This document shows, piece after piece, positions 11,891 to 63,645 of a DNA stretch of 64,000 nt; the stretch's first letter is position 1, and each line of letters opens with the position of its first letter. The stretch covers positions 25,549,693 through 25,613,692 of the forward strand of contig NC_067205.1 of NCBI RefSeq assembly GCF_026262505.1, read 5' to 3'. Below the pieces are notes generated by a model. It made no database searches. It saw only the letters and a program-made list of their open reading frames with translations, and was not told the DNA's origin. The position numbers and the translations under genes are program-made. The DNA is from Trichomonas vaginalis G3. Taxonomy: Eukaryota; Parabasalia; Trichomonadida; Trichomonadidae.

Positions 11891-12069
11891 TCTAATGAAG
11901 TACGTTAACAATCAAAATATTCTATAAGTGTCTAGTATGGAATTCAAAAGAATAAAGAAAATGGTAACGTAAATAAACGTATTATGAAATAATTTATAAT
12001 TAAAATGAAAAAAAGAAAAAATAATAAGTAAAGTGAGTGGAAATGAAAATTAAAATCAGTGAACAGTTT

Positions 12070-25579: not shown

Positions 25580-26905
25580 TTAAGACCTAGCGAGGATGAT
25601 TAAGTATGAAATTGCTAGGATGATGAATGCGAATGTGAGTGCATCGACTCGTAAAATAAGCCTCCTGAGGTCGAATGACTCGTGTTCAATGAGTAACTCT
25701 TCTTCTTCATCTTCCTCTTCATTTTCATCGTCTGATTTGCTTGCCTCAACTATTGCTGATTCTGGCGCCTCTTCCTCCTCAGCAATTTGTACATCTCTTG
25801 TAACTGCAACTACATCTTCCTCTTCCTCGTTAAGTTCCTTCTCTTCTAATTTCAATTGTAATTCCTTGTTCTTATCAGCGAGTTCGTCAACCTTCTGCAT
25901 CAGAAGTTGTACGTTCTGTTGGAGAACAATGTATTCTGTTTCTCTATGTTCGATTACTCTGTGCTCCAAAACTTCAAGTCTGCTGATAATTACTTGTATC
26001 TGTTCTGTGAATGTATTGTTCATTACTATTATTTGTGTATTCTGTTCTCTATAAAGTGTTTCTAATTGAATAATTCTCTGTTCAATTTGAATGATTGTTT
26101 CCTTGTCGACTTTGCTCTTGAGAATGACTAAGATGGCATTCAACTTCTCATTGATTCTGTCAAGATCTTGTGGTGCCTCTGACAACTTAGCCTCTTGTGT
26201 GTCATTGAATTTGTCTGCAAGATCTTGGACTCTGTCGGCTAACTGTTTGACTGCATCATCGAGTTTACTGTCTCTGTCATACTGAGCATCGTCTCTGTTC
26301 TTCAGTTCATTAACCTGTTGTTTGATATTTTCAATTTCTTCATCTTGTTTGTTATCTTTGTTGTCATTGTTATTAATCTGATCTTGGATGGCCTTGAGTA
26401 AGTTCTTTAGATCTTCTATGTCATTCATATTCTTATCATCGCCAGCCTTGATCTTGTTATCAATGTCATCAAATCTGTCATTAAGTGACTGAACAAGTGC
26501 TTTGTTCTTTGCAGCACGCTGTTCATCTTCTTGCTTCTTTTGTTCTGTATCTTTGATGTGGTCCATAATTGCTTTAATGTCTTCTTCTTGCTTATTGTCC
26601 TTATTGTCAAGTCTTACAACAAGGGCCTTAAGAACATCATCATCCGCTTTAGTATTTATGAGGTTGTTGAGAGCTATAAGAGCATCGTTAACACCTTGGA
26701 GATCTTGTGCACCTTGTGTGACTTTGGCAACCTCATTATTTCTTATCTGATCTTTAAGTTCTTTAAGTTTATCTTCGAGATCGTTGAGAGTATCTTCATT
26801 GGCAGTAACCTTGTCATCAAGAAGTGCATCTTTATCGTAAAGTTGCCTAAGTTTATCAGAAAGATCCATAATGTATTCATCTTGTTTGTTATCGCGAGCA
26901 TCATT
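25580..26905 (-). other. Unique C-terminal segment with tail anchor of the giant protein
   Basis: 441 codons open in one frame after the TAA at 26906-26908; the first Met (MDLSDKLRQLYD) is at 26869. It is a diverged version of the array unit, then heptad-rich coiled coil (QIIVMNNTFTEQIQVIISRL), an acidic stretch (EEEEAPESAIVEASKSDDEN), and a final hydrophobic helix ALTFAFIILAISYLIIL followed by ARS and the stop. A C-terminal membrane helix with almost nothing after it is a tail anchor: the coiled coil would face the cytosol. The segment could also be a separate 429-residue protein if the TAA is genuine. Confidence 0.8.
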
Positions 26906-29900
26906 TTAAGCGGTAACATTATTCAATTCATTAACTTTCTTTTGAAGTTCCTTGAGAGCATCGTTCAACTCAGAAAGTGTTGGAGCATTCTCATCTTCTG
27001 GTGTGGCAGCGACAAGGTCGATGTCACGTGCTTGGACTTCACCAACACCCTCTTCTTCTGGATGCATCTCATTTTGCAATTCATTGATCTTGTCTTGCAA
27101 TTCGTTAAGCTTGTCTTGAAGGGCTTGATACTCGTTCAACTTGTCCTTGAGCTCGTTGAGATCGTCATCTTGCTTGTTGTCCTTGTCCTCGTTGGCGTTC
27201 TGGCGATCGTTGAGAGCATCGAGTTGCTCCTTGAGTGCCTTGAGGTCTTTCTCGTTCTTGTCGTCGCCGTCTTGGATCTTGTTGTCGAGATCGTTGAACT
27301 TGTCGTTCAAGTTCTGGACAAGTGCCTTGTTCTTGGCAGCACGCTGCTCGTCTTCCTCCTTCTTTCTGTCTTCCATCTCTTGGATCTTGTCGGCGAGTGC
27401 CTTGAGATCCTCATCTTGCTTGTTGTCCTTGTTGTCGTTGCGGTTCAACCTGTCTTCGAGGGCCTTGAGAGCATCGTCGTCGGCCTTCTCCTTGATGAGG
27501 TTGTTGAGAGCATTGAGAGCGTCGTTGACACCCTGGAGATCTTCGGCACCTTGGGTAGCCTTGGCTTCCTCGGCGTCTCTGATCTTGTCCTTGAGATCCT
27601 GGAGTCTGTCGGCGAGGGACTTGATTGCTTCTTCGTTGGCCTTGTCCTTCTCGTCCTGAGCGGCATCCTTGTCCTTGAGTTCTTGGATGGCGCCTTCAAG
27701 GTTCTTGTCCTTCTCGTCCTGAGCGGCATCCTTGTCCTTGAGTTCTTGGATGGCGCCTTCAAGGTTCTTGTCCTTCTCGTCCTGAGCGGCATCCTTGTCC
27801 TTGAGTTCTTGGATGGCGCCTTCAAGGTTCTTGTCCTTCTCGTCCTGAGCGGCATCCTTGTCTTGGAGACCCTTGACCTTGTCTGCAAGATCCATGATGT
27901 ACTCGTCTTGCTTGTTGTCGCGGTTGTCTGTGTTGTCGGCCTTGTCGTTAAGCTCCTTGACCTTGTCTTCGAGAGCCTTAAGAGCATCGTTGACGTTCTT
28001 GAGGTCTTCGGCGCCTTGGGCTGCATTAGCCTCATCGACAGCCTTGATCTTGTCATCAAGAGAGTTCAACTTGTCCTTGAGCTCGTTGAGATCGTCATCT
28101 TGCTTGTTGTCCTTGTCCTCGTTGGCGTTCTGGCGATCGTTGAGAGCATCGAGTTGCTCCTTGAGTGCCTTGAGGTCTTTCTCGTTCTTGTCGTCGCCGT
28201 CTTGGATCTTGTTGTCGAGATCGTTGAACTTGTCGTTCAAGTTCTGGACAAGTGCCTTGTTCTTGGCAGCACGCTGCTCGTCTTCCTCCTTCTTTCTGTC
28301 TTCCATCTCTTGGATCTTGTCGGCGAGTGCCTTGAGATCCTCATCTTGCTTGTTGTCCTTGTTGTCGTTGTTGTTCAACCTGTCTTCGAGGGCCTTGAGA
28401 GCATCGTCGTCGGCCTTCTCCTTGATGAGGTTGTTGAGAGCATTGAGAGCGTCGTTGACACCCTGGAGATCTTCGGCACCTTGGGTAGCCTTGGCTTCCT
28501 CGGCGTCTCTGATCTTGTCCTTGAGATCCTGGAGTCTGTCGGCGAGGGACTTGATTGCTTCTTCGTTGGCCTTGTCCTTCTCGTCCTGAGCGGCATCCTT
28601 GTCCTTGAGTTCTTGGATGGCGCCTTCAAGGTTCTTGTCCTTCTCGTCCTGAGCGGCATCCTTGTCCTTGAGTTCTTGGATGGCGCCTTCAAGGTTCTTG
28701 TCCTTCTCGTCCTGAGCGGCATCCTTGTCTTGGAGACCCTTGACCTTATCTTCTAATGCTTGAAGAGCATCGTTAACGTTCTTAAGGTCTTCATCTTGCT
28801 TGTTATCTTTGTTATCGTTATCTTCAGCCTTAGCTGCAAGATCGTTGAGCTTCTCTTGAAGTTCCTTGAGAGCATCGTTCAACTCAGAAAGTGTTGGAGC
28901 ATTCTCATCTTCTGGTGTGGCAGCGACAAGGTCGATGTCACGTGCTTGGACTTCACCAACACCCTCTTCTTCTGGATGCATCTCATTTTGCAATTCATTG
29001 ATCTTGTCTTGCAATTCGTTAAGCTTGTCTTGAAGGGCTTGATACTCGTTCAACTTGTCCTTGAGCTCGTTGAGATCGTCATCTTGCTTGTTGTCCTTGT
29101 CCTCGTTGGCGTTCTGGCGATCGTTGAGAGCATCGAGTTGCTCCTTGAGTGCCTTGAGGTCTTTCTCGTTCTTGTCGTCGCCGTCTTGGATCTTGTTGTC
29201 GAGATCGTTGAACTTGTCGTTCAAGTTCTGGACAAGTGCCTTGTTCTTGGCAGCACGCTGCTCGTCTTCCTCCTTCTTTCTGTCTTCCATCTCTTGGATC
29301 TTGTCGGCGAGTGCCTTGAGATCCTCATCTTGCTTGTTGTCCTTGTTGTTTGTTGTTCAACCTGTCTTCGAGGGCCTTGAGAGCATCGTCGTCGGCCTTC
29401 TCCTTGATGAGGTTGTTGAGAGCATTGAGAGCGTCGTTGACACCCTGGAGATCTTCGGCACCTTGGGTAGCCTTGGCTTCCTCGGCGTCTCTGATCTTGT
29501 CCTTGAGATCCTGGAGTCTGTCGGCGAGGGACTTGATTGCTTCTTCGTTGGCCTTGTCCTTCTCGTCCTGAGCGGCATCCTTGTCCTTGAGTTCTTGGAT
29601 GGCGCCTTCAAGGTTCTTGTCCTTCTCGTCCTGAGCGGCATCCTTGTCCTTGAGTTCTTGGATGGCGCCTTCAAGGTTCTTGTCCTTCTCGTCCTGAGCG
29701 GCATCCTTGTCTTGGAGACCCTTGACCTTGTCTGCAAGATCCATGATGTACTCGTCTTGCTTGTTGTCGCGGTTGTCTGTGTTGTCGGCCTTGTCGTTAA
29801 GCTCCTTGACCTTGTCTTCGAGAGCCTTAAGAGCATCGTTGACGTTCTTGAGGTCTTCGGCGCCTTGGGCTGCATTAGCCTCATCGACAGCCTTGATCTT

Positions 29901-32900
29901 GTCATCAAGAGAGTTCAACTTGTCCTTGAGCTCGTTGAGATCGTCATCTTGCTTGTTGTCCTTGTCCTCGTTGGCGTTCTGGCGATCGTTGAGAGCATCG
30001 AGTTGCTCCTTGAGTGCCTTGAGGTCTTTCTCGTTCTTGTCGTCGCCGTCTTGGATCTTGTTGTCGAGATCGTTGAACTTGTCGTTCAAGTTCTGGACAA
30101 GTGCCTTGTTCTTGGCAGCACGCTGCTCGTCTTCCTCCTTCTTTCTGTCTTCCATCTCTTGGATCTTGTCGGCGAGTGCCTTGAGATCCTCATCTTGCTT
30201 GTTGTCCTTGTTGTCGTTGTTGTTCAACCTGTCTTCGAGGGCCTTGAGAGCATCGTCGTCGGCCTTCTCCTTGATGAGGTTGTTGAGAGCATTGAGAGCG
30301 TCGTTGACACCCTGGAGATCTTCGGCACCTTGGGTAGCCTTGGCTTCCTCGGCGTCTCTGATCTTGTCCTTGAGATCCTGGAGTCTGTCGGCGAGGGACT
30401 TGATTGCTTCTTCGTTGGCCTTGTCCTTCTCGTCCTGAGCGGCATCCTTGTCCTTGAGTTCTTGGATGGCGCCTTCAAGGTTCTTGTCCTTCTCGTCCTG
30501 AGCGGCATCCTTGTCTTGGAGACCCTTGACCTTGTCTGCAAGATCCATGATGTACTCGTCTTGCTTGTTGTCGCGGTTGTCTGTGTTGTCGGCCTTGTCG
30601 TTAAGCTCCTTGACCTTGTCTTCGAGAGCCTTAAGAGCATCGTTGACGTTCTTGAGGTCTTCGGCGCCTTGGGCTGCATTAGCCTCATCGACAGCCTTGA
30701 TCTTGTCATCAAGAGAGTTCAACTTGTCCTTGAGCTCGTTGAGATCGTCATCTTGCTTGTTGTCCTTGTCCTCGTTGGCGTTCTGGCGATCGTTGAGAGC
30801 ATCGAGTTGCTCCTTGAGTGCCTTGAGGTCTTTCTCGTTCTTGTCGTCGCCGTCTTGGATCTTGTTGTCGAGATCGTTGAACTTGTCGTTCAAGTTCTGG
30901 ACAAGTGCCTTGTTCTTGGCAGCACGCTGCTCGTCTTCCTCCTTCTTTCTGTCTTCCATCTCTTGGATCTTGTCGGCGAGTGCCTTGAGATCCTCATCTT
31001 GCTTGTTGTCCTTGTTGTCGTTGTTGTTCAACCTGTCTTCGAGGGCCTTGAGAGCATCGTCGTCGGCCTTCTCCTTGATGAGGTTGTTGAGAGCATTGAG
31101 AGCGTCGTTGACACCCTGGAGATCTTCGGCACCTTGGGTAGCCTTGGCTTCCTCGGCGTCTCTGATCTTGTCCTTGAGATCCTGGAGTCTGTCGGCGAGG
31201 GACTTGATTGCTTCTTCGTTGGCCTTGTCCTTCTCGTCCTGAGCGGCATCCTTGTCCTTGAGTTCTTGGATGGCGCCTTCAAGGTTCTTGTCCTTCTCGT
31301 CCTGAGCGGCATCCTTGTCTTGGAGACCCTTGACCTTGTCTGCAAGATCCATGATGTACTCGTCTTGCTTGTTGTCGCGGTTGTCTGTGTTGTCGGCCTT
31401 GTCGTTAAGCTCCTTGACCTTGTCTTCGAGAGCCTTAAGAGCATCGTTGACGTTCTTGAGGTCTTCGGCGCCTTGGGCTGCATTAGCCTCATCGACAGCC
31501 TTGATCTTGTCATCAAGAGAGTTCAACTTGTCCTTGAGCTCGTTGAGATCGTCATCTTGCTTGTTGTCCTTGTCCTCGTTGGCGTTCTGGCGATCGTTGA
31601 GAGCATCGAGTTGCTCCTTGAGTGCCTTGAGGTCTTTCTCGTTCTTGTCGTCGCCGTCTTGGATCTTGTTGTCGAGATCGTTGAACTTGTCGTTCAAGTT
31701 CTGGACAAGTGCCTTGTTCTTGGCAGCACGCTGCTCGTCTTCCTCCTTCTTTCTGTCTTCCATCTCTTGGATCTTGTCGGCGAGTGCCTTGAGATCCTCA
31801 TCTTGCTTGTTGTCCTTGTTGTCGTTGTTGTTCAACCTGTCTTCGAGGGCCTTGAGAGCATCGTCGTCGGCCTTCTCCTTGATGAGGTTGTTGAGAGCAT
31901 TGAGAGCGTCGTTGACACCCTGGAGATCTTCGGCACCTTGGGTAGCCTTGGCTTCCTCGGCGTCTCTGATCTTGTCCTTGAGATCCTGGAGTCTGTCGGC
32001 GAGGGACTTGATTGCTTCTTCGTTGGCCTTGTCCTTCTCGTCCTGAGCGGCATCCTTGTCCTTGAGTTCTTGGATGGCGCCTTCAAGGTTCTTGTCCTTC
32101 TCGTCCTGAGCGGCATCCTTGTCTTGGAGACCCTTGACCTTGTCTGCAAGATCCATGATGTACTCGTCTTGCTTGTTGTCGCGGTTGTCTGTGTTGTCGG
32201 CCTTGTCGTTAAGCTCCTTGACCTTGTCTTCGAGAGCCTTAAGAGCATCGTTGACGTTCTTGAGGTCTTCGGCGCCTTGGGCTGCATTAGCCTCATCGAC
32301 AGCCTTGATCTTGTCATCAAGAGAGTTCAACTTGTCCTTGAGCTCGTTGAGATCGTCATCTTGCTTGTTGTCCTTGTCCTCGTTGGCGTTCTGGCGATCG
32401 TTGAGAGCATCGAGTTGCTCCTTGAGTGCCTTGAGGTCTTTCTCGTTCTTGTCGTCGCCGTCTTGGATCTTGTTGTCGAGATCGTTGAACTTGTCGTTCA
32501 AGTTCTGGACAAGTGCCTTGTTCTTGGCAGCACGCTGCTCGTCTTCCTCCTTCTTTCTGTCTTCCATCTCTTGGATCTTGTCGGCGAGTGCCTTGAGATC
32601 CTCATCTTGCTTGTTGTCCTTGTTGTCGTTGTTGTTCAACCTGTCTTCGAGGGCCTTGAGAGCATCGTCGTCGGCCTTCTCCTTGATGAGGTTGTTGAGA
32701 GCATTGAGAGCGTCGTTGACACCCTGGAGATCTTCGGCACCTTGGGTAGCCTTGGCTTCCTCGGCGTCTCTGATCTTGTCCTTGAGATCCTGGAGTCTGT
32801 CGGCGAGGGACTTGATTGCTTCTTCGTTGGCCTTGTCCTTCTCGTCCTGAGCGGCATCCTTGTCCTTGAGTTCTTGGATGGCGCCTTCAAGGTTCTTGTC

Positions 32901-35900
32901 CTTCTCGTCCTGAGCGGCATCCTTGTCCTTGAGTTCTTGGATGGCGCCTTCAAGGTTCTTGTCCTTCTCGTCCTGAGCGGCATCCTTGTCCTTGAGTTCT
33001 TGGATGGCGCCTTCAAGGTTCTTGTCCTTCTCGTCCTGAGCGGCATCCTTGTCTTGGAGACCCTTGACCTTGTCTGCAAGATCCATGATGTACTCGTCTT
33101 GCTTGTTGTCGCGGTTGTCTGTGTTGTCGGCCTTGTCGTTAAGCTCCTTGACCTTGTCTTCGAGAGCCTTAAGAGCATCGTTGACGTTCTTGAGGTCTTC
33201 GGCGCCTTGGGCTGCATTAGCCTCATCGACAGCCTTGATCTTGTCATCAAGAGAGTTCAACTTGTCCTTGAGCTCGTTGAGATCGTCATCTTGCTTGTTG
33301 TCCTTGTCCTCGTTGGCGTTCTGGCGATCGTTGAGAGCATCGAGTTGCTCCTTGAGTGCCTTGAGGTCTTTCTCGTTCTTGTCGTCGCCGTCTTGGATCT
33401 TGTTGTCGAGATCGTTGAACTTGTCGTTCAAGTTCTGGACAAGTGCCTTGTTCTTGGCAGCACGCTGCTCGTCTTCCTCCTTCTTTCTGTCTTCCATCTC
33501 TTGGATCTTGTCGGCGAGTGCCTTGAGATCCTCATCTTGCTTGTTGTCCTTGTTGTCGTTGTTGTTCAACCTGTCTTCGAGGGCCTTGAGAGCATCGTCG
33601 TCGGCCTTCTCCTTGATGAGGTTGTTGAGAGCATTGAGAGCGTCGTTGACACCCTGGAGATCTTCGGCACCTTGGGTAGCCTTGGCTTCCTCGGCGTCTC
33701 TGATCTTGTCCTTGAGATCCTGGAGTCTGTCGGCGAGGGACTTGATTGCTTCTTCGTTGGCCTTGTCCTTCTCGTCCTGAGCGGCATCCTTGTCCTTGAG
33801 TTCTTGGATGGCGCCTTCAAGGTTCTTGTCCTTCTCGTCCTGAGCGGCATCCTTGTCCTTGAGTTCTTGGATGGCGCTTCAAGGTTCTTGTCCTTCTCGT
33901 CCTGAGCGGCATCCTTGTCCTTGAGTTCTTGGATGGCGCCTTCAAGGTTCTTGTCCTTCTCGTCCTGAGCGGCATCCTTGTCCTTGAGTTCTTGGATGGC
34001 GCCTTCAAGGTTCTTGTCCTTCTCGTCCTGAGCGGCATCCTTGTCTTGGAGACCCTTGACCTTGTCTGTAAGATCCATGATGTACTCGTCTTGCTTGTTG
34101 TCGCGGTTGTCTGTGTTGTCGGCCTTGTCGTTAAGCTCCTTGACCTTGTCTTCGAGAGCCTTAAGAGCATCGTTGACGTTCTTGAGGTCTTCGGCGCCTT
34201 GGGCTGCATTAGCCTCATCGACAGCCTTGATCTTGTCATCAAGAGAGTTCAACTTGTCCTTGAGCTCGTTGAGATCGTCATCTTGCTTGTTGTCCTTGTC
34301 CTCGTTGGCGTTCTGGCGATCGTTGAGAGCATCGAGTTGCTCCTTGAGTGCCTTGAGGTCTTTCTCGTTCTTGTCGTCGCCGTCTTGGATCTTGTTGTCG
34401 AGATCGTTGAACTTGTCGTTCAAGTTCTGGACAAGTGCCTTGTTCTTGGCAGCACGCTGCTCGTCTTCCTCCTTCTTCTGTCTTCCATCTCTTGGATCTT
34501 GTCGGCGAGTGCCTTGAGATCCTCATCTTGCTTGTTGTCCTTGTTGTCGTTGCGGTTCAACCTGTCTTCGAGGGCCTTGAGAGCATCGTCGTCGGCCTTC
34601 TCCTTGATGAGGTTGTTGAGAGCATTGAGAGCGTCGTTGACACCCTGGAGATCTTCGGCACCTTGGGTAGCCTTGGCTTCCTCGGCGTCTCTGATCTTGT
34701 CCTTGAGATCCTGGAGTCTGTCGGCGAGGGACTTGATTGCTTCTTCGTTGGCCTTGTCCTTCTCGTCCTGAGCGGCATCCTTGTCCTTGAGTTCTTGGAT
34801 GGCGCCTTCAAGGTTCTTGTCCTTCTCGTCCTGAGCGGCATCCTTGTCCTTGAGTTCTTGGATGGCGTCTTCAAGGTTCTTGTCCTTCTCGTCCTGAGCG
34901 GTATCCTTGTCTTGGAGACCCTTGACCTTATCTTCTAATGCTTGAAGAGCATCGTTAACGTTCTTAAGGTCTTCATCTTGCTTGTTATCTTTGTTATCGT
35001 TATCTTCAGCCTTAGCTGCAAGATCGTTGAGCTTCTCTTGAAGTTCCTTGAGAGCATCGTTCAACTCAGAAAGTGTTGGAGCATTCTCATCTTCTGGTGT
35101 GGCAGCGACAAGGTCGATGTCACGTGCTTGGACTTCACCAACACCCTCTTCTTCTGGATGCATCTCATTTTGCAATTCATTGATCTTGTCTTGCAATTCG
35201 TTAAGCTTGTCTTGAAGGGCTTGATACTCGTTCAACTTGTCCTTGAGCTCGTTGAGATCGTCATCTTGCTTGTTGTCCTTGTCCTCGTTGGCGTTCTGGC
35301 GATCGTTGAGAGCATCGAGTTGCTCCTTGAGTGCCTTGAGGTCTTTCTCGTTCTTGTCGTCGCCGTCTTGGATCTTGTTGTCGAGATCGTTGAACTTGTC
35401 GTTCAAGTTCTGGACAAGTGCCTTGTTCTTGGCAGCACGCTGCTCGTCTTCCTCCTTCTTTCTGTCTTCCATCTCTTGGATCTTTCGGCGAGTGCCTTGA
35501 GATCCTCATCTTGCTTGTTGTCCTTGTTGTCGTTGTTGTTCAACCTGTCTTCGAGGGCCTTGAGAGCATCGTCGTCGGCCTTCTCCTTGATGAGGTTGTT
35601 GAGAGCATTGAGAGCGTCGTTGACACCCTGGAATCTTCGGCACCTTGGGTAGCCTTGGCTTCCTCGGCGTCTCTGATCTTGTCCTTGAGATCCTGGAGTC
35701 TGTCGGCGAGGGACTTGATTGCTTCTTCGTTGGCCTTGTCCTTCTCGTCCTGAGCGGCATCCTTGTCCTTGAGTTCTTGGATGGCGCCTTCAAGGTTCTT
35801 GTCCTTCTCGTCTCTGAGCGGCATCCTTGTCCTTGAGTTCTTGGATGGCGCCTTCAAGGTTCTTGTCCTTCTCGTCTGAGCGGCATCCTTGTCTTGGAGA

Positions 35901-50900: not shown

Positions 50901-53900
50901 ATTCTCATCTTCTGGTGTGGCAGCGACAAGGTCGATGTCACGTGCTTGGACTTCACCAACACCTCTTCTTCTGGATGCATCTCATTTTGCAATTCATTGA
51001 TCTTGTCTTGCAATTCGTTAAGCTTGTCTTGAAGGGCTTGATACTCGTTCAACTTGTCCTTGAGCTCGTTGAGATCGTCATCTTGCTTGTTGTCCTTGTC
51101 CTCGTTGGCGTTCTGGCGATCGTTGAGAGCATCGAGTTGCTCCTTGAGTGCCTTGAGGTCTTTCTCGTTCTTGTCGTCGCCGTCTTGGATCTTGTTGTCG
51201 AGATCGTTGAACTTGTCGTTCAAGTTCTGGACAAGTGCCTTGTTCTTGGCAGCACGCTGCTCGTCTTCCTCCTTCTTTCTGTCTTCCATCTCTTGGATCT
51301 TGTCCGGCGAGTGCCTTGAGATCCTCATCTTGCTTGTTGTCCTTGTTGTCGTTGTTGTTCAACCTGTCTTCGAGGGCCTTGAGAGCATCGTCGTCGGCCT
51401 TCTCCTTGATGAGGTTGTTGAGAGCATTGAGAGCGTCGTTGACACCCTGGAGATCTTCGGCACCTTGGGTAGCCTTGGCTTCTCGGCGTCTCTGATCTTG
51501 TCCTTGAGATCCTGGAGTCTGTCGGCGAGGGACTTGATTGCTTCTCGTTGGCCTTGTCCTTCTCGTCCTGACGGCATCCTTGTCCTTGAGTTCTTGATGG
51601 CGCCTTCAAGGTTCTTGTCCTTCTCGTCCTGAGCGGCATCCTTGTCCTTGAGTTCTTGGATGGCGCCTTCAAGGTTCTTGTCCTTCTCGTCCTGAGCGGC
51701 ATCCTTGTCCTTGAGTTCTTGGATGGCGCCTTCAAGGTTCTTGTCCTTCTCGTCCTAGCGCATCCTTGTCCTTGAAGTTCTTGGATGGCGCCTTCAAGGT
51801 TCTTGTCCTTCTCGTCCTGAGCGGCATCCTTGTCCTTGAGTTCTTGGATGGCGCCTTCAAGGTTCTTGTCCTTCTCGTCCTGAGCGGCATCCTTGTCCTT
51901 GAGTTTTGGATGGCGCCTTCAAGGTTCTTGTCCTTCTCGTCCTGAGCGGCATCCTTGTCCTTGAGTTCTTGGATGGCGTCTTCAGGTTCTTGTCCTTCGT
52001 CCTGAGCGGCATCCTTGTCCTTGAGTTCTTGGATGGCGCCTTCAAGGTTCTTGTCCTTCTCGTCCTGAGCGGCATCCTTGTCCTTGAGTTCTTGGATGGC
52101 GTCTTCAAGGTTCTTGTCCTTCTCGTCCTGAGCGGCATCCTTGTCCTTGAGTTCTTGGATGGCGTCTTCAAGGTTCTTGTCCTTCTCGTCCTGAGCGGCA
52201 TCCTTGTCCTTGAGTTCTTGGATGGCGTCTTTCAAGGTTCTTGTCCTTCTCGTCCTGAGCGGCATCCTTGTCTCTGAGTTCTTGGATGGCGCCTTCAAGT
52301 TCTTGTCCTTCTCGTCCTGAGCGGCATCCTTGTCTTGGAGACCCTTGACCTTGTCTGCAAGATCCATATTGATGTACTCGTCTTGCTTGTTGTCGCGGTT
52401 GTCTGTGTTGTCGGCCTTGTCGTTAAGCTCCTTGACCTTGTCTTCGAGAGCCTTAAGAGCATCGTTGACGTTCTTGAGGTCTTCGGCGCCTTGGGCTGCA
52501 TTAGCCTCATCGACAGCCTTGATCTTGTCATCAAGAGAGTTCAACTTGTCCTTGAGCTCGTTGAGATCGTCATCTTGCTTGTTGTCCTTGTCCTCGTTGG
52601 CGTTCTGGCGATCGTTGAGAGCATCGAGTTGCTCCTTGAGTGCCTGAGGTCTTTCTCGTTCTTGTCGTCGCCGTCTTGGATCTTGTTGTCGAGATCGTTG
52701 AACTTGTCGTTCAAGTTCTGGACAAGTGCCTTGTTCTTGGCAGCACGCTGCTCGTCTTCCTCCTTCTTTCTGTCTTCCATCTCTTGGATCTTGTCGGCGA
52801 GTGCCTTGAGATCCTCATCTTGCTTGTTGTCCTTGTTGTCGTTGTTGTTCAACCTGTCTTCGAGGGCCTTGAGAGCATCGTCGTCGCCTTCTCCTTGATG
52901 AGGTTGTGAGAGCATTGAGAGCGTCGTTGACACCCTGGAGATCTTCGGCACCTTGGGTAGCCTTGGCTTCCTCGGCGTCTCTGATCTTGTCCTTGAGATC
53001 CTGGAGTCTGTCGGCGAGGACTTGATTGCTTCTTCGTTGGCCTTGTCCTTCTCGTCCTGAGCGGCATCTCTTGTCCTTGAGTTCTTGGATGGCGCCTTCA
53101 AGGTTCTTGTCCTTCTCGTCCTGAGCGGCATCCTTGTCTTGAGTTCTTGGATGGCGTCTTCAAGGTTCTTGTCCTTCTCGTCCTGAGCGGTATCCTTGTC
53201 TTGGAGACCCTTGACCTTATCTTCTAATGCTTGAAGAGCATCGTTAACGTTTCTTAAGGTCTTCATCTTGCTTGTTATCTTTGTTATCGTTATCTTCAGC
53301 CTTAGCTGCAAGATCGTTGAGCTTCTCTTGAAGTTCCTTGAGAGCATCGTTCAACTCAGAAAGTGTTGGAGCATTCTCATCTTCTGGTGTGGCAGCGACA
53401 AGGTCGATGTCACGTGCTTGGACTTCACCAACACCCTCTTCTTCTGGATGCATCTCATTTTGCAATTCATTGATCTTGTCTTGCAATTCGTTAAGCTTGT
53501 CTTGAAGGGCTTGATACTCGTTCAACTTGTCCTTGAGCTCGTTGAGATCGTCATCTTGCTTGTTGTCCTTGTCCTCGTTGGCGTTCTGGCGATCGTTGAG
53601 AGCATCGAGTTGCTCCTTGAGTGCCTTGAGGTCTTTCTCGTTCTTGTCGTCGCCGTCTTGGATCTTGTTGTCGAGATCGTTGAACTTGTCGTTCAAGTTC
53701 TGGACAAGTGCCTTGTTCTTGGCAGCACGCTGCTCGTCTTCCTCCTTCTTTCTGTCTTCCATCTCTTGGATCTTGTCGGCGAGTGCCTTGAGATCCTCAT
53801 CTTGCTTGTTGTCCTTGTTGTCGTTGTTGTTCAACCTGTCTTCGAGGGCCTTGAGAGCATCGTCGTCGGCCTTCTCCTTGATGAGGTTGTTGAGAGCATT

Positions 53901-56900
53901 GAGAGCGTCGTTGACACCCTGGAGATCTTCGGCACCTTGGGTAGCCTTGGCTTCCTCGGCGTCTCTGATCTTGTCCTTGAGATCCTGGAGTCTGTCGGCG
54001 AGGGACTTGATTGCTTCTTCGTTGGCCTTGTCCTTCTCGTCCTGAGCGGCATCCTTGTCCTTGAGTTCTTGGATGGCGCCTTCAAGGTTCTTGTCCTTCT
54101 CGTCCTGAGCGGCATCCTTGTCCTTGAGTTCTTGGATGGCGCCTTCAAGGTTCTTGTCCTTCTCGTCCTGAGCGGCATCCTTGTCCTTGAGTTCTTGGAT
54201 GGCGCCTTCAAGGTTCTTGTCCTTCTCGTCCTGAGCGGCATCCTTGTCTTGGAGACCCTTGACCTTGTCTGCAAGATCCATGATGTACTCGTCTTGCTTG
54301 TTGTCGCGGTTGTCTGTGTTGTCGGCCTTGTCGTTAAGCTCCTTGACCTTGTCTTCGAGAGCCTTAAGAGCATCGTTGACGTTCTTGAGGTCTTCGGCGC
54401 CTTGGGCTGCATTAGCCTCATCGACAGCCTTGATCTTGTCATCAAGAGAGTTCAACTTGTCCTTGAGCTCGTTGAGATCGTCATCTTGCTTGTTGTCCTT
54501 GTCCTCGTTGGCGTTCTGGCGATCGTTGAGAGCATCGAGTTGCTCCTTGAGTGCCTTGAGGTCTTTCTCGTTCTTGTCGTCGCCGTCTTGGATCTTGTTG
54601 TCGAGATCGTTGAACTTGTCGTTCAAGTTCTGGACAAGTGCCTTGTTCTTGGCAGCACGCTGCTCGTCTTCCTCCTTCTTTCTGTCTTCCATCTCTTGGA
54701 TCTTGTCGGCGAGTGCCTTGAGATCCTCATCTTGCTTGTTGTCCTTGTTGTCGTTGCGGTTCAACCTGTCTTCGAGGGCCTTGAGAGCATCGTCGTCGGC
54801 CTTCTCCTTGATGAGGTTGTTGAGAGCATTGAGAGCGTCGTTGACACCCTGGAGATCTTCGGCACCTTGGGTAGCCTTGGCTTCCTCGGCGTCTCTGATC
54901 TTGTCCTTGAGATCCTGGAGTCTGTCGGCGAGGGACTTGATTGCTTCTTCGTTGGCCTTGTCCTTCTCGTCCTGAGCGGCATCCTTGTCCTTGAGTTCTT
55001 GGATGGCGCCTTCAAGGTTCTTGTCCTTCTCGTCCTGAGCGGCATCCTTGTCTTGGAGACCCTTGACCTTGTCTGCAAGATCCATGATGTACTCGTCTTG
55101 CTTGTTGTCGCGGTTGTCTGTGTTGTCGGCCTTGTCGTTAAGCTCCTTGACCTTGTCTTCGAGAGCCTTAAGAGCATCGTTGACGTTCTTGAGGTCTTCG
55201 GCGCCTTGGGCTGCATTAGCCTCATCGACAGCCTTGATCTTGTCATCAAGAGAGTTCAACTTGTCCTTGAGCTCGTTGAGATCCTCATCTTGCTTGTTGT
55301 CCTTGTTGTCGTTGTTGTTCAACCTGTCTTCGAGGGCCTTGAGAGCATCGTCGTCGGCCTTCTCCTTGATGAGGTTGTTGAGAGCATTGAGAGCGTCGTT
55401 GACACCCTGGAGATCTTCGGCACCTTGGGTAGCCTTGGCTTCCTCGGCGTCTCTGATCGTGTCCTTGAGATCCTGGAGTCTGTCGGAGGGACTTGATTGC
55501 TTCTTCGTTGGCCTTGTCCTTCTCGTCCTGAGCGGCATCCTTGTCCTTGAGTTCTTGGATGGCGCCTTCAAGGTTCTTGTCCTTCTCGTCCTGAGCGGCA
55601 TCCTTGTCCTTGAGTTCTTGGATGGCGTCTTCAAGGTTCTTGTCCTTCTCGTCCTGAGCGGCATCCTTGTCTTGGAGACCCTTGACCTTGTCTGCAAGAT
55701 CCATGATGTACTCGTCTTGCTTGTTGTCGCGGTTGTCTGTGTTGTCGGCCTTGTCGTTAAGCTCCTTGACCTTGTCTTCGAGAGCCTTAAGAGCATCGTT
55801 GACGTTCTTGAGGTCTTCGGCGCCTTGGGCTGCATTAGCCTCATCGACAGCCTTGATCTTGTCATCAAGAGAGTTCAACTTGTCCTTGAGCTCGTTGAGA
55901 TCGTCATCTTGCTTGTTGTCCTTGTCCTCGTTGGCGTTCTGGCGATCGTTGAGAGCATCGAGTTGCTCCTTGAGTGCCTTGAGGTCTTTCTCGTTCTTGT
56001 CGTCGCCGTCTTGGATCTTGTTGTCGAGATCGTTGAACTTGTCGTTCAAGTTCTGGACAAGTGCCTTGTTCTTGGCAGCACGCTGCTCGTCTTCCTCCTT
56101 CTTTCTGTCTTCCATCTCTTGGATCTTGTCGGCGAGTGCCTTGAGATCCTCATCTTGCTTGTTGTCCTTGTTGTCGTTGCGGTTCAACCTGTCTTCGAGG
56201 GCCTTGAGAGCATCGTCGTCGGCCTTCTCCTTGATGAGGTTGTTGAGAGCATTGAGAGCGTCGTTGACACCCTGGAGATCTTCGGCACCTTGGGTAGCCT
56301 TGGCTTCCTCGGCGTCTCTGATCTTGTCCTTGAGATCCTGGAGTCTGTCGGCGAGGGACTTGATTGCTTCTTCGTTGGCCTTGTCCTTCTCGTCCTGAGC
56401 GGCATCCTTGTCCTTGAGTTCTTGGATGGCGCCTTCAAGGTTCTTGTCCTTCTCGTCCTGAGCGGCATCCTTGTCTTGGAGACCCTTGACCTTGTCTGCA
56501 AGATCCATGATGTACTCGTCTTGCTTGTTGTCGCGGTTGTCTGTGTTGTCGGCCTTGTCGTTAAGCTCCTTGACCTTGTCTTCGAGAGCCTTAAGAGCAT
56601 CGTTGACGTTCTTGAGGTCTTCGGCGCCTTGGGCTGCATTAGCCTCATCGACAGCCTTGATCTTGTCATCAAGAGAGTTCAACTTGTCCTTGAGCTCGTT
56701 GAGATCGTCATCTTGCTTGTTGTCCTTGTCCTCGTTGGCGTTCTGGCGATCGTTGAGAGCATCGAGTTGCTCCTTGAGTGCCTTGAGGTCTTTCTCGTTC
56801 TTGTCGTCGCCGTCTTGGATCTTGTTGTCGAGATCGTTGAACTTGTCGTTCAAGTTCTGGACAAGTGCCTTGTTCTTGGCAGCACGCTGCTCGTCTTCCT

Positions 56901-59900
56901 CCTTCTTTCTGTCTTCCATCTCTTGGATCTTGTCGGCGAGTGCCTTGAGATCCTCATCTTGCTTGTTGTCCTTGTTGTCGTTGTTGTTCAACCTGTCTTC
57001 GAGGGCCTTGAGAGCATCGTCGTCGGCCTTCTCCTTGATGAGGTTGTTGAGAGCATTGAGAGCGTCGTTGACACCCTGGAGATCTTCGGCACCTTGGGTA
57101 GCCTTGGCTTCCTCGGCGTCTCTGATCGTGTCCTTGAGATCCTGGAGTCTGTCGGCGAGGGACTTGATTGCTTCTTCGTTGGCCTTGTCCTTCTCGTCCT
57201 GAGCGGCATCCTTGTCCTTGAGTTCTTGGATGGCGCCTTCAAGGTTCTTGTCCTTCTCGTCCTGAGCGGCATCCTTGTCTTGGAGACCCTTGACCTTGTC
57301 TGCAAGATCCATGATGTACTCGTCTTGCTTGTTGTCGCGGTTGTCTGTGTTGTCGGCCTTGTCGTTAAGCTCCTTGACCTTGTCTTCGAGAGCCTTAAGA
57401 GCATCGTTGACGTTCTTGAGGTCTTCGGCGCCTTGGGCTGCATTAGCCTCATCGACAGCCTTGATCTTGTCATCAAGAGAGTTCAACTTGTCCTTGAGCT
57501 CGTTGAGATCCTCATCTTGCTTGTTGTCCTTGTTGTCGTTGTTGTTCAACCTGTCTTCGAGGGCCTTGAGAGCATCGTCGTCGGCCTTCTCCTTGATGAG
57601 GTTGTTGAGAGCATTGAGAGCGTCGTTGACACCCTGGAGATCTTCGGCACCTTGGGTAGCCTTGGCTTCCTCGGCGTCTCTGATCGTGTCCTTGAGATCC
57701 TGGAGTCTGTCGGCGAGGGACTTGATTGCTTCTTCGTTGGCCTTGTCCTTCTCGTCCTGAGCGGCATCCTTGTCCTTGAGTTCTTGGATGGCGCCTTCAA
57801 GGTTCTTGTCCTTCTCGTCCTGAGCGGCATCCTTGTCCTTGAGTTCTTGGATGGCGCCTTCAAGGTTCTTGTCCTTCTCGTCCTGAGCGGCATCCTTGTC
57901 CTTGAGTTCTTGGATGGCGCCTTCAAGGTTCTTGTCCTTCTCGTCCTGAGCGGCATCCTTGTCCTTGAGTTCTTGGATGGCGCCTTCAAGGTTCTTGTCC
58001 TTCTCGTCCTGAGCGGCATCCTTGTCTTGGAGACCCTTGACCTTGTCTGCAAGATCCATGATGTACTCGTCTTGCTTGTTGTCGCGGTTGTCTGTGTTGT
58101 CGGCCTTGTCGTTAAGCTCCTTGACCTTGTCTTCGAGAGCCTTAAGAGCATCGTTGACGTTCTTGAGGTCTTCGGCGCCTTGGGCTGCATTAGCCTCATC
58201 GACAGCCTTGATCTTGTCATCAAGAGAGTTCAACTTGTCCTTGAGCTCGTTGAGATCGTCATCTTGCTTGTTGTCCTTGTCCTCGTTGGCGTTCTGGCGA
58301 TCGTTGAGAGCATCGAGTTGCTCCTTGAGTGCCTTGAGGTCTTTCTCGTTCTTGTCGTCGCCGTCTTGGATCTTGTTGTCGAGATCGTTGAACTTGTCGT
58401 TCAAGTTCTGGACAAGTGCCTTGTTCTTGGCAGCACGCTGCTCGTCTTCCTCCTTCTTTCTGTCTTCCATCTCTTGGATCTTGTCGGCGAGTGCCTTGAG
58501 ATCCTCATCTTGCTTGTTGTCCTTGTTGTCGTTGTTGTTCAACCTGTCTTCGAGGGCCTTGAGAGCATCGACATCGGATGTTTCTTTCACCACATTCTCT
58601 AATTCTTGTAACTTTTTATTTAGATCATCATTTAATTGAGCCCATTTATCTGCGTTCGCTGCTTCTTTTTCTAAAATGTCATTATCTAATTTATTTATCA
58701 ATTTCTTCAACTCCTCAATATCAGCATTTTGGGTTTCATCTAATTTTTCATTTTCTGCTAATCTTTGCAAAATATTGCTTAAATCATCTTTAAGTGAAGC
58801 ATTTTCTTTTTCAATTTGCTCAATTTTCTCATTGAGATCTTGTAACGTAGGTCCTGGATCTTCATCAGGCACAGCACATTCTAATTGAATATCCCTTGCC
58901 TGTATTTCTCCAATTGCCTCTTCTTCTGGATGAACTACTTTTTCAAGTTCATCATATTTATCCTGAAGATCATTGAACTTTTGATTCATTTGATCAAGAC
59001 GATCTTTGAGTTCGTTGATTCTTTGATCGTGATTAACAAGATCATCGTCTTGTTTGTTGTCTTTGTCTTCGTTGTTGTTTTGGCGATCATTAAGGGCATC
59101 AAGTTGTTCCTTAAGTGCTTTAAGATCGTCCTCGTTCTTTTTATCGCCTTCTTGGATGAGATTGCCGAGATCGTTGAACTTGTCATTAAGATTGTCAACA
59201 AGAACTTTGTTCTTGGCAAGACGTTGTTCATCTTCTTCTTTCTTCTTGTCTTCCATCTCTTGGATCTTGTCTTTAAGTGCATTGATGTCTTCGTCTTGTT
59301 TGTTGTCATTATTATCATTATGATTCAATCTCTCTTCGAGTGCTTTAATAGCATCTTCATCAACTTTATCTTCAAGAAGATTGTTGATAGCATTGATGCG
59401 ATCATTAACACCAGCAAGATCTTCTGCACCTTGAGCAGCTTTGGCTTCTTCGGTGTCTTTAAGTTGATCTTTAAGTTCTTGAAGTTTATCTTGAAGATCT
59501 TTGAGGGCTTGATTTTGGAAAGAATCATTGTCTTTAAGAGTTTGAAGATCTTGGTCTTGTTGATTATCTTTCTCATTATTTGCATTAACTTTGTCTTCAA
59601 GTTCTTTCAGAGCATTGTCGCGTGCAGCATCTTTGGCATCTTTGTCTTGATCTTTGTCGTTAAGAGTGTTGATTTGATCCTTAAGAGCATTAAGATCTTC
59701 GTCTTGCTTGTTGTCTTTGTCTTCGTTGGCGTTCTGGCGATCATTAAGGGCATCGAGTTGTTCCTTAAGTGCTTTGATGCCATCTTCGTTCTTCTGATCT
59801 CCTTCTTGGATCTTGTTGTCAAGGTCATTGAACTTGTCATTCAAGTTTTGGACAAGAGCACGGTTCTTCTCGGCACGTTGCTCGTCTTCTTCTTTCTTCT

Positions 59901-62900
59901 TGTCTTCCATCTCTTGGATCTTGTCTTTAAGTGCATTGATGTCTTCGTTTTGCTTGTTATCGTTGTTATCGTTGTTGTTAAGTCGTTCTTCAAGAGCTTT
60001 AACGGTATCGTCGTTAGCCTTGTCCTTAAGAAGATTGTTGAGGGCATCAAGACGATCGTTGACACCGGCAAGATCTTCGGCACCTTGAGCGGCTTTGGCT
60101 TCTTCGTTAGCTTTGATCTTGTCGTCAAGGGCTTGAAGTTGATCCTTAAGTGCATTGATGTTTTCGTCTTGTTGATTGTCTTTATCGTTATTAGCATTTA
60201 ATTTGTCTTCAAGATATTTAAGAGAAGAATCTCTAGCATCATCTTTAATTTGATTAGCTTGTTCCTGTTCGGTTAAAGATTGAAGTTGATTCTTAAGAGT
60301 TTGAAGATCTTGGTCTTGTTGATTATCTTTCTCATTATTTGCATTAACTTTGTCTTCAAGTTCTTTCAGAGCATTGTCGCGTGCAGCATCTTTGGCATCT
60401 TTGTCTTGATCTTTGTCGTTAAGAGTGTTGATTTGATCCTTAAGAGCATTAAGATCTTCGTCTTGCTTGTTGTCTTTGTCTTCGTTGGCGTTCTGGCGAT
60501 CATTAAGGGCATCGAGTTGTGCTTTGAGTGCTTGGATATCATTCTCGTTCTTCTGATCACCTTCCTGAACTTGATTGTTAAGGTCGTTGAAGCGGTCGTT
60601 AAGACTGTCAACAAGAACTTTGTTCTTGGCAAGACGTTGTTCATCTTCTTCTTTCTTCTTGTCTTCCATCTCTTGGATCTTGTCTTTAAGTGCATTGATG
60701 TCTTCGTCTTGCTTGTTGTCTTTGTTGTTGTTATCGTCGATCTTGTTGTTGAGAGCATCGAGACGATCGTTGACACCGGCAAGATCTTCGGCACCTTGAG
60801 CGGCTTTGGCTTCTTCGTTGGCTTTGATCTTGTCGTCAAGGGCTTGAAGTTGATCCTTAAGTGCATTGATGTCTTCATCTTGTTCGTTATCCTTAGCTTC
60901 ATTGGCATTAGCTCTGTCTTCTAGTGCTTGAACTTTGTCTCCAAGATTTTGAACGTCTTGATCTTGTTTGTTGTCTTTGTCTTCGTTAGCGTTCTGGCGA
61001 TCATTCAGAGAATCAAGTTGTTCTTTGAGTGCTTTGATGCCATCTTCGTTCTTCTGATCTCCTTCTTGGATCTTGTTGTCAAGGTCATTGAACTTGTCAT
61101 TCAAGTTTTGGACAAGAGCACGGTTCTTCTCGGCACGTTGCTCGTCTTCTTCTTTCTTCTTGTCTTCCATCTCTTGGATCTTGTCTTTAAGTGCATTGAT
61201 GTCTTCGTTTTGCTTGTTATCGTTGTTATCGTTGTTGTTAAGTCGTTCTTCAAGAGCTTTAACGGTATCGTCGTTAGCCTTGTCCTTAAGAAGATTGTTG
61301 AGGGCATCAAGACGATCGTTGACACCGGCAAGATCTTCGGCACCTTGAGCGGCTTTGGCTTCTTCGTTAGCTTTGATCTTGTCGTCAAGGGCTTGAAGTT
61401 GATCCTTAAGTGCATTGATGTTTTCGTCTTGTTCGTTATCCTTAGCTTCAATGCCTTTCAGAACTTCATCTTGATTGTTGTCTTTGGCGTCGTTAGCGTT
61501 AGTCTTCTCTTCAAGAGCTGCTAATTTGTCACCAAGGTCTTTGATAGCTTGGTCTTGCTTAGCATCGACATCGTTCAACTTGTTGTCAAAGTCGTCGAGG
61601 TTGAGCTGGAGATCACGCGTCTTAACGGCACCTTGCTCTTCAAGCTCGGCAACTTTGTCTTGAAGTGCTTTAATGTCTTCATCTTGCTTGTTATCGTTAG
61701 AATCGTTAGCATCAATTTGGACCTTGAGTGCTTTGAGCTCATCATCATTCTTTTGGTTGGAGGTATTTACCTTATCTTCAAGCTCTTTGATAGCATTGTC
61801 TCTGGCAGCATCTTTATCGTTGAGAGAGTTGACTTGATCTTTGAGGGAATTAAGATCTTCATCTTGTTTGTTATTTTTGTCTTGAAGTTCTTTAAGAGCA
61901 TTATCACGAGCTGCGTCTTTAGAATCTTTTTCTTGTTCTTTTTCATTAATTGCATTAATTTGGTCCTTAAGGGCATTAAGATCTTCATCCTGTTTGTTGT
62001 CTTTGTCTTCATTAGCGTTCTCACGATCATTAAGAGCATCGAGCTGTTCTTTGAGTGCTTTGATATCATTTTCATTCTTCTGGTCACCTTCCTGAACTTG
62101 GTTGCCAAGATCATTGAACTTGTCGTTGAGGCTGTCGACAAGAACTTTGTTCTTAGCGAGTCTTTGTTCATCTTCTACTTTCTTCATCTCATCCATGTCG
62201 TTGAGGCGGTCGACAATAGATTTGATGTCTTCATCTTGTTTGTTGTCTTTGTTGTTGTTTTCGTTGATCTTATCATTGAGTGCGTTGAGGCGGTCATTTA
62301 CACTCTGAAGATCTTCTGCACCTTGAGCAGCTTTAGCTTCTTCGTTTGCCTTGAATTTATCGTCAAGGGCTTTAAGTTGGTCCTTAAGAGCATTTATATC
62401 TTCGTCTTGTTTGTTGTCTTTGCTCTCCTGAGCATTGATCTTGTCTTCAAGACCTTTAAGAGCTTCATCTTGTTTGTTGTCTTTGTCTTCCAAAGCATTG
62501 AATTTCTCATCTTGTTTGTTGTCTCGATCGTTGTTAGCATCGGCTTTATCACTAAGTTCCTTGATCTTTTCTTCGAGGTTTTTAATAGCTTGGTCTTGCT
62601 TCGCGTCGACATCATTTAACTTATTGTCGAAATCATCGAAGTTAAGTTGGAGATCGCGAGATCTAACAAGTCCTTGGCCTTCAAGATCTTGAATACGATC
62701 CTGTAAAGTCTTAATATCCTCATCTTGTTTAGTATCTTTTTCTTCATTAGCCTTTTCTTGATTGGAAAGAGCATTAAGTTTGCTAGTAAGCTCTTTAATA
62801 TCTTCTTGATTCTTATTAGACTGATCTTTGTTGTCATTATCTCCTTGCTTCATTAGATTTTCCAAGTCATTAAATCTATCTTGGAGATTCTGTAAATTCT

Positions 62901-63645
62901 TATCATTATTATTATCTCTTTCTTCATTGTTTTGTTGATTCTTCTTTGCTTCATCTTCATTTTGATCAATTTTATCTTTTAACGAATTAATTAAATTATT
63001 AAGATCTTGAATATCTTTAGCATTTTTTTCATTATTATTATCATAGTTATTCGCTTTTTCTTTGATGTCATTAATTTGATTTTGCAGATCATCGGCTTTT
63101 TCCTTGGCCTTTTCTGATTCTGCGCTAGCATTATCTTCTAGCATAAGTAATTTCTCTTGAGCATTCTTTAATTTCTCTTCTTCATCATTTAAACGTTGTT
63201 CTACTAAAACTATTTCATTATGTACGTTAGTAACATTTTGTTCGATATTAGTAACATTAGCAATTGTTTTCATTTGTTCGATTATTGTTTGATAATTTTC
63301 TTCTAAAATAAGAACTCTTTCATCAATTGAGTCGATATTATCACTATTTTTATCGCACTGTTCTTGTAGTTCTTTAATATGATCTCCAATACAATTATTA
63401 ATAGTGGTTGTAATGGATTGATTCTGTACGTCAAATTCTTCCCTAATTTTCATAATTTCATTTGTCACGTAATGGGATGTTTTCGTAAATTCTTCTTTCA
63501 TACTTGCGATTTCTTTAAGATTTTGAGTAATTTTGAAATCAATTTCACCAATTTTTTGGTCTCCTTTGTTAAATTGTAAAATAGCCTTTTTTATTACCTT
63601 TAACTTTGATTCCAATTCAATTATTTTGTCTTGAGCTTCAGTCAT
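25580..63645 (-). CDS. Giant tail-anchored tandem-repeat coiled-coil protein (one gene, frame interrupted)
   Basis: Start ATG at 63645 (MTEAQDKIIELESK) and stop TAA at 25580-25582, about 12,690 codons if continuous. The sequence is almost entirely charged amphipathic helix: Lys, Asp, Glu, Asn, Gln, Ala, Leu. The main unit has no Pro, Trp, Cys or His. Order: diverged N-terminal coiled coil (to ~58569), homogenised array of 268-residue units (to ~26909), unique C-terminal coiled coil and a terminal hydrophobic helix with only three residues after it. The motif DNKQDE recurs every few dozen residues and probably marks register breaks. In this sequence the frame is lost at ~55487 and ~29346 (2-nt deletions), at many sites from 33.9 to 53.3 kb, and by a TAA at 26906-26908. 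Continuity of coiled-coil coding on the same strand across all breaks argues for one gene. Function is unknown; a giant golgin-like tether or cytoskeletal filament anchor fits the layout. Confidence 0.8.
26906..26908 (-). other. In-frame TAA separating array from C-terminal anchor
   Basis: The - strand reads ...NELNNVTA, TAA, NDARDNKQDEYIMD... without a frame change. Aligned to array units (ELNDKADNTDNRDNKQDEYI), the stop replaces one residue, an Asn in the array consensus. A single substitution therefore removes the tail anchor from the encoded giant protein. Confidence 0.85.
44222..44990 (-). repeat. Expanded 63 bp sub-repeat, about 12 copies
   Basis: Each 63 bp encodes 21 residues (three heptads) of the type DAAQDEKDKNLEGAIQEL plus KDK. 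Most 804 bp units carry one to three copies; here about twelve are in tandem, with Ala/Asp alternation at one site (LEGAIQ versus LEDAIQ). Confidence 0.85.
51560..52330 (-). repeat. Second expanded 63 bp sub-repeat, about 12 copies
   Basis: Same 21-residue repeat as at 44222-44990, about twelve copies, with several single-base indels. Length polymorphism is expected here. Confidence 0.8.
58569..63645 (-). other. Diverged N-terminal coiled-coil region of the giant protein
   Basis: About 1690 residues in one open frame. It has the same ingredients as the array (DNKQDED, ALKDKIQEMEDKKKEEDEQR, NLNDKFNDL), but copies differ clearly in sequence and codons are more A/T-rich. The first ~250 residues are unique coiled coil (VTNIEQNVTNVHNEIVLVEQ). 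Punctuating RDLQL/RDIQL motifs occur near 62655, 61610 and 58890. This looks like the older, unhomogenised part of the gene from which the array unit was amplified. Confidence 0.85.

What the first reader, a model, noticed from the sequence alone, without database searches (positions are those of the whole stretch)
25580..63645. A ~38 kb gene for a giant tail-anchored coiled-coil protein
Seen: about 12,690 codons of continuous charged heptad-type coding on one strand, with an ATG and unique N-terminus, a repeat core and a unique C-terminus ending in a 17-residue hydrophobic helix plus ARS. Known: giant golgins such as giantin are long coiled coils with a C-terminal membrane anchor, and trichomonads build large striated fibres (costa, parabasal filaments) and an unusual Golgi (parabasal body). 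Inference: it may be a membrane-anchored tether or filament, perhaps 1 micrometre or more if fully extended. This is the strongest candidate here for an undescribed system.
Basis: partly seen in the sequence, partly recalled or inferred. Interest (0 to 1): 0.8.

Follow-up and report, generated by a model that had tools for sequence, protein, structure and literature searches.

The report
Giant repeat gene, broken in assembly
A very long repeat-built gene of the parasite Trichomonas vaginalis encodes a giant rod-like (coiled-coil) protein, but as assembled it is not one open gene: its middle is full of sequencing-type errors and a stop codon cuts off the end that carries the membrane anchor.

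Summary
The locus is real: a minus-strand gene runs from ATG at 63645 to a stop at 25580 in Trichomonas vaginalis (180.85-Mb assembly, contig C3), coding mostly for proline-poor, heptad-periodic helix. It is not "12,690 continuous codons". That figure is the span divided by three; ATG and final stop are in different frames, and the first stop comes after 2,786 codons. The middle (about 33.9-55.5 kb) carries 96 mostly 1-nt indels. Two 7.35-kb copies there differ by 1 substitution but 85 indels, so the breaks are consensus noise and the array length is uncertain. An in-frame TAA (26906-26908), outside that zone, cuts off the 441-codon tail with its single C-terminal hydrophobic helix. Paralogs on C1 and C4 have a sense codon there, so the tail ancestrally shared this frame. 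Diverged repeats and paralogs show purifying selection (omega 0.08-0.33 in 9 of 12 comparisons). GC3 rises from about 0.2 to over 0.7 and tracks copy identity (rho 0.86), suggesting gene conversion. One paralog fuses the coil to two Ras/Rab-type GTPase stretches. Best reading: a megadalton, ancestrally tail-anchored cytosolic scaffold or tether. Golgin membership is unsupported, and the anchor is unproven in this allele.

The parts
63670..63675 (-). TCATTT, matching the T. vaginalis Inr consensus TCAYTW (consensus recalled), starting 30 nt upstream of the ATG
   Evidence: weak: 2 of 10 neighbouring ORFs have one within 60 nt of their first in-frame ATG
55285..63645 (-). 5' ORF of the giant gene: 2,786 codons from ATG plus stop; unique residues 1-147, diverged repeats to about 1,680, then near-identical repeats
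33878..55485 (-). noisy repeat core: 96 indels in 20.9 kb aligned to flanking copies, about 72 frame switches
46110..53456 (-). 7.35-kb higher-order block, copy 1 (module order u3AKVYu13AK / u3AKVYu4AKVYu5AK / u3AKVYu5AK)
38756..46109 (-). 7.35-kb higher-order block, copy 2: same module order, 1 substitution and 85 indels from copy 1; recent duplication or assembly duplication
29351..33877 (-). clean repeat core, open in one frame, 1,508 codons, no hydrophobic segment; one frame break at its 3' edge (about 29,350)
26909..29350 (-). last repeats before the tail, open in one frame
26906..26908 (-). in-frame TAA separating the core from the anchored tail
   Evidence: paralog alignment runs across it
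25580..26905 (-). tail ORF, 441 codons plus stop; residues 1-236 are diverged repeats (best matches 56-61% identical), residues after 277 without match in the genome search
25589..25639 (-). 17-residue hydrophobic helix, the only candidate transmembrane segment in the parts scanned (N-terminal ORF, clean core, tail), followed by RS
   Evidence: Kyte-Doolittle mean 2.45 over 19 residues; maximum 0.41 in the N-terminal ORF and 0.03 in the clean core; helical in a low-confidence model; no dedicated TM predictor was run

Best explanation
This is one repeat-expanded protein-coding gene of Trichomonas vaginalis. Its product is a cytosolic, almost entirely helical, polar-core coiled coil of roughly 10,000-12,700 residues (about 1.2-1.45 MDa; up to 1.5-1.9 micrometres if fully extended). 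The ancestral protein ended in a single C-terminal hydrophobic helix, i.e. tail-anchored topology. Length grows by unequal exchange of 63-bp, ~0.8-kb and multi-kb repeats, which are kept alike by gene conversion. Shown: coding, periodicity, purifying selection on diverged repeats, hydrophobic C-terminal helix, paralogs, frame breaks. Inferred: single transcript, rod assembly, membrane attachment, gene conversion. Most likely function (inferred): a rod anchored at one end to an endomembrane, acting as scaffold or tether near Rab-marked membranes. In this assembly the TAA would give a soluble rod without anchor unless it is an error or an allele.
For: No stop for 2,786 codons from the ATG, and further long open stretches in the accurate zones. 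Omega 0.08-0.33 in 9 of 12 comparisons of diverged repeats and paralogs; of the other 3, two had saturated dS and one was a self-overlap and was dropped. Tail against core: pN 0.34-0.38 with pS 0.75-0.87. Periodicity in 11 of 11 N-terminal windows. The indels are noise: two 7.35-kb copies differ by 1 substitution and 85 indels, and their separate indel counts against the clean copies (43 and 37) add up to about that number, so few if any are shared. C1 and C4 paralogs align across the TAA with a sense codon (C1 also). The tail has one hydrophobic helix at the extreme C-terminus. The C1 paralog carries Ras-family domains, PF00071 E=9e-85, two stretches. GC3 against identity: rho=0.86 over 31 windows.
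Against: The sequence as given is broken: about 73 frame switches and a TAA outside the noisy zone. Expression, a single transcript and membrane insertion are untested. The public protein set returned the tail as a separate 429-aa protein that begins at the first Met after the TAA (P0001), and did not return the N-terminal ORF at all. The C1 and C4 copies have no hydrophobic C-terminal helix (19-residue maxima over their last 100 residues 0.18, 0.96 and 0.21), and the C4 copy is split in two. No homolog outside this genome was found, so function cannot be transferred.
Confidence: 0.5

Rival explanations
1. Giant soluble coiled-coil cytoskeletal rod: the TAA at 26906-26908 is the true end of the gene in this strain, and the downstream 441-codon ORF is a relic or a separate small gene. 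The protein builds a filament or striated fibre rather than a membrane tether.
For: The TAA lies outside the indel-rich zone; the database's tail protein starts after it; the C1 and C4 copies end without a hydrophobic helix. Trichomonads build striated fibres from coiled-coil proteins, and a large coiled-coil protein P477 is associated with the atractophore (review passages, PMC13071381).
Against: Paralogs show the frame once ran through the site. The tail stays open for 441 codons (0 of 2,000 mononucleotide shuffles do) despite saturated synonymous divergence from the repeats. No Inr-like site in the 192 nt upstream of the TAA (weak).
Confidence: 0.27
2. Non-functional or satellite-like array: a once-coding gene now decaying, expanded by recombination and not expressed.
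For: In-frame TAA; a frame break near 29,350 consistent with the one 2-nt deletion seen in the flanking zone; near-identical recent copies; a split C4 copy.
Against: Long open frames in the accurate zones; omega 0.08-0.33 in 9 of 12 comparisons; few if any shared indels between the duplicate blocks; 5' ORF intact for 2,786 codons.
Confidence: 0.13
3. Several separate genes: repeat copies or the tail are transcribed as independent units and the giant is an annotation illusion.
For: No single ORF exists; C4 holds a 957-codon stand-alone copy starting at an ATG inside a repeat.
Against: Breaks concentrate in one noisy zone and few if any are shared by the duplicate blocks. Only 2 Inr-like sites occur on the coding strand of the whole array, though the motif is a weak marker here.
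Confidence: 0.1

Closest known systems
Tail-anchored golgins (giantin, golgin-84, CASP)
   Same: Long coiled coil, cytosolic, single C-terminal transmembrane anchor (layout in PMC4707255, passages seen)
   Different: No golgin family among the Pfam matches at E<=10; several times longer than giantin (its size recalled); near-identical tandem repeats; anchor separated by a TAA in this assembly; Golgi location unknown
Trypanosome NUP-1
   Same: Giant, lineage-restricted coiled coil with near-perfect tandem repeats between unique ends (17 repeats of 144 aa; PMC3313915, passages seen)
   Different: NUP-1 has no predicted transmembrane helix and is >400 kDa; no homology shown; location here unknown
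Trypanosomatid giant cytoskeletal proteins (FAZ10, ClpGM6)
   Same: Repetitive high-mass proteins; the authors suggest FAZ10's repeats may not have been correctly assembled (PMC5358337, passages seen)
   Different: No homology shown; those sit at the flagellum attachment zone
T. vaginalis P477 and costa/parabasal-filament coiled-coil proteins
   Same: Large or coiled-coil structural proteins of trichomonads (PMC13071381, passages seen)
Hydrogenosomal C-tail-anchored proteins of T. vaginalis
   Same: Cytosolic domain plus extreme C-terminal hydrophobic helix
   Different: Reported ones have TMDs of 19-23 aa and 2-7 positive residues after the TMD (PMC3174187, passages seen); here 17 hydrophobic residues and one positive residue

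Membership tests
Tail-anchored golgin (giantin type) | Predominantly coiled coil facing the cytosol | tested here: met
   Periodicity in 11 of 11 N-terminal windows and tail 1-240, not in tail 241-441; no hydrophobic N-terminal segment. Cytosolic side is inferred from the lack of a signal-like segment
Tail-anchored golgin (giantin type) | C-terminal TM anchor in the same polypeptide | tested here: inconclusive
   Hydrophobic helix present, but an in-frame TAA separates it in this assembly
Tail-anchored golgin (giantin type) | Sequence similarity to a golgin family | tested here: not met
   No golgin Pfam family at E<=10 for the tail or the 2,719-residue N-terminal ORF (HMMER filters drop many weak matches)
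Tail-anchored golgin (giantin type) | Golgi localisation | not testable with these tools
   needs tagging
Hydrogenosomal tail-anchored protein | TMD of 19-23 residues followed by 2-16 residues with 2-7 positive charges | tested here: not met
   17 hydrophobic residues then RS: one positive residue (rule from PMC3174187 passages)
KASH/nesprin-type nuclear anchor | KASH domain at the C-terminus | tested here: not met
   Not among Pfam matches at E<=10; only two residues follow the hydrophobic helix
Intermediate-filament / striated-fibre proteins of trichomonads | Assembles into filaments or sits in costa or parabasal fibres | not testable with these tools
   No comparison sequences or localisation data held

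The most novel reading that the evidence does not exclude
A single polypeptide of at least 10,000 residues (more than 1.1 MDa) forming a membrane-anchored coiled-coil rod 1.5-1.9 micrometres long, a sizeable fraction of the cell's length. It would be a length-adjustable ruler or tether whose reach evolves by repeat exchange and gene conversion, in a small family that also includes a double Rab-type GTPase fused to the same coil.
Probability: 0.2. Interest if true: 0.75.

Novelty: new member of a known kind. Interest (0 to 1): 0.45.

Why it matters
If the anchor and core are one protein, it would be among the longest coiled coils known (general knowledge, not checked here) and a direct handle on how trichomonads position their Golgi and fibres. 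Even without the anchor, it is a clear case where a chromosome-scale assembly hides a giant gene behind uncorrected repeat noise. It is also a within-gene test of GC-biased gene conversion: GC3 rises with copy identity along one reading frame.

Tried and rejected
Homologs elsewhere: three protein searches (N-terminal ORF residues 1-500; tail; tail 240-441) found only the window's own tail. Candidate caps (7,977 and 7,991 scored) and length limits apply, so absence is not proven; the N-terminal ORF did not find even itself.

Pfam on tail and N-terminal ORF: nothing credible. PDB by sequence, tail only: one chance-level match, E=0.68. Fold search with the N-terminal model (mean pLDDT 72.8): 580 matches at E<=10, none at E<=0.001, the 50 listed being mostly coiled-coil or helical segments of unrelated proteins. 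The tail model is low confidence (pLDDT 57.5) and was not searched.

Promoter and polyadenylation motifs: not discriminating. Inr-like site in 2 of 10 neighbours; TAAA within 63 nt from the stop onward in 10 of 10, and the internal TAA is also followed by AA.

Codon bias as a sign of high expression: rejected, because GC3 changes inside one ORF and follows repeat identity.

Periodicity control: the shuffles used a coarser period grid than the observed value; repeated on the same grid, with the same result.

MAFFT comparison of the two 7.35-kb copies drifted in the 63-bp units and was replaced by a global alignment. In one search one translation printed in a wrong frame was ignored.

Literature: ten searches; judged by titles and starts of abstracts, no listed paper is on this gene. 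Nine papers were looked into, as outline or passages only, none whole.

Full report
Where it is. The window is C3:25549693-25613692 of a 180.85-Mb, 86-contig assembly; C3 is 27,737,965 bases. A triosephosphate isomerase gene of that genome is identical over 252 of 252 residues to PDB 3qst, which I recall as T. vaginalis. The size fits the ~180-Mb, six-chromosome G3 assembly (PMC12316389, passages). Of ten neighbouring ORFs, those with domains above the curated cut-off are eukaryote-like (tubulin-tyrosine ligase, DHHC, protein kinase, calcineurin-type phosphatase with TPR) or an integrase core; four have no Pfam match.

What the sequence shows. The gene lies on the minus strand, ATG 63645 to stop 25580. 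Reading from the ATG, the first stop comes after 2,786 codons. The span is 38,066 nt, not a multiple of three. A codon-usage frame path needs about 73 switches (76 segments, two of them flank artefacts): about 72 between 55,486 and 33,877, plus one at about 29,350. There is also one in-frame TAA at 26906-26908.

Why most breaks are noise. Aligning 53 tiles of 400 nt of the noisy zone to the flanking copies gave 96 indels, 84 of them 1 nt, 68 next to an identical base, and 31 mismatches, 25 of them one type. Control tiles of the flanking zones gave 1 indel and 6 mismatches in 17 tiles, and 0 indels and 36 mismatches in 9. Module order shows a three-part block occurring twice. The two 7.35-kb copies differ by 1 substitution and 85 indels. 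Against the clean copies they show 43 and 37 indels and 12 and 15 mismatches, so the substitutions are largely shared and the indels are not. Inherited frameshifts would be shared; independent consensus errors would not. The same fact means the duplication could itself be an assembly product, so the gene is about 30.7 or 38.1 kb long, or something else.

The TAA. This break is different: a single in-frame stop outside the noisy zone, immediately before the tail. Two diverged relatives, on C1 and C4, align on both sides of it and carry a sense codon there. The whole-genome search with the C1 coil returns the giant locus at 44% identity across the site (window 26702-26974) with '1 TAA'. The tail beyond it is open for 441 codons (0 of 2,000 shuffles are), with pN 0.34-0.38 against pS 0.75-0.87 relative to four stretches of the repeats. 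So tail and core were one frame ancestrally, at least for the part the relatives retain (tail residues to about 77; they end there). Whether this strain now makes the anchored form cannot be decided here. The public protein set lists a 429-aa tail protein starting at the first Met after the TAA, on two contigs; whether the second is an independent assembly is unknown.

Protein. Hydrophobic periodicity (3.50-3.60; power exactly at 3.50 is lower in most windows, as expected with stutters) exceeds all 300 same-grid shuffles in 11 of 11 N-terminal windows and in tail 1-240; tail 241-441 does not show it. Proline is 0.1% in the N-terminal ORF. In the N-terminal ORF, the clean core and the tail the only strong hydrophobic segment is the last helix; the noisy core was not scanned. 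Single-sequence models of the first 350 residues and of the tail are almost all helix but of moderate and low confidence. Diverged repeats and paralogs gave omega 0.08-0.33 in 9 of 12 comparisons; two were saturated and one was a self-overlap. These pairs are not independent, and several dS values are near saturation.

Repeat evolution. GC3 is 0.20-0.23 in the unique N-terminus (2 windows), 0.19-0.52 in diverged repeats (15), 0.69-0.77 in near-identical repeats (10) and 0.26-0.40 in the tail (4). Across these 31 windows of 100 codons GC3 correlates with identity to the nearest other copy (Spearman 0.86; windows are not independent). Codon selection for expression should act on the whole gene, so GC-biased gene conversion in the homogenised core is the better explanation (inference).

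Family. In this genome the coil occurs at three places in the searches made (hit lists are lower bounds): this locus; C4, a 957-codon copy whose best matches are 96-99% identical (others lower) plus a 486-codon diverged piece 2.5 kb downstream; and C1, a 1,055-codon ORF with two Ras-family GTPase stretches (PF00071, E=9e-85) fused to a diverged coil. None of these copies has a hydrophobic C-terminal helix. Tail residues beyond 277 match nothing else in the genome search, though a permissive pairwise BLASTP stretches the coil similarity further.

Function. The GTPase fusion and the C-terminal helix both point to membranes, so I favour an endomembrane scaffold or tether over a fibre, with low certainty. 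The hydrogenosomal tail rule (TMD 19-23 aa, 2-7 positive residues after it; PMC3174187) is not met. No golgin family matches. Layout resembles giantin (PMC4707255) and repeat build resembles NUP-1 (PMC3313915), which are likenesses, not memberships.

Verdict. The strongest open question is the codon at 26906-26908.

Noticed in passing
C1:22247713-22250880 (-), locus L012: 1,055-codon ORF with two Ras/Rab-type GTPase stretches fused to a coiled coil related to the giant's; possibly an unusual membrane-scaffold architecture.
   Followed up: partly
C4:34922109-34928980 (+), loci L009-L010: A 957-codon near-identical core copy and a 486-codon diverged piece, same strand, separated by about 2.5 kb without a long open frame; looks like one former gene split by an insertion.
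   Followed up: partly
C3:25618894-25620870 (+), locus L033, just outside the window: 658-codon ankyrin-repeat ORF with a C-terminal hydrophobic stretch seen by eye, another candidate tail-anchored protein 5.6 kb upstream of the giant's ATG.
   Followed up: partly
window 10233-10518 and 12067-12508: 120/121-bp tandem repeats, apparently in opposite orientation, on either side of an integrase-core ORF (10916-11617, PF00665): likely a mobile element.
   Followed up: no
window 13869-18026 (+): 1,385-codon ORF with no Pfam match at E<=0.01.
   Followed up: no
window 25580-63645: GC3 rises from about 0.2 to over 0.7 inside one reading frame in step with repeat identity.
   Followed up: yes
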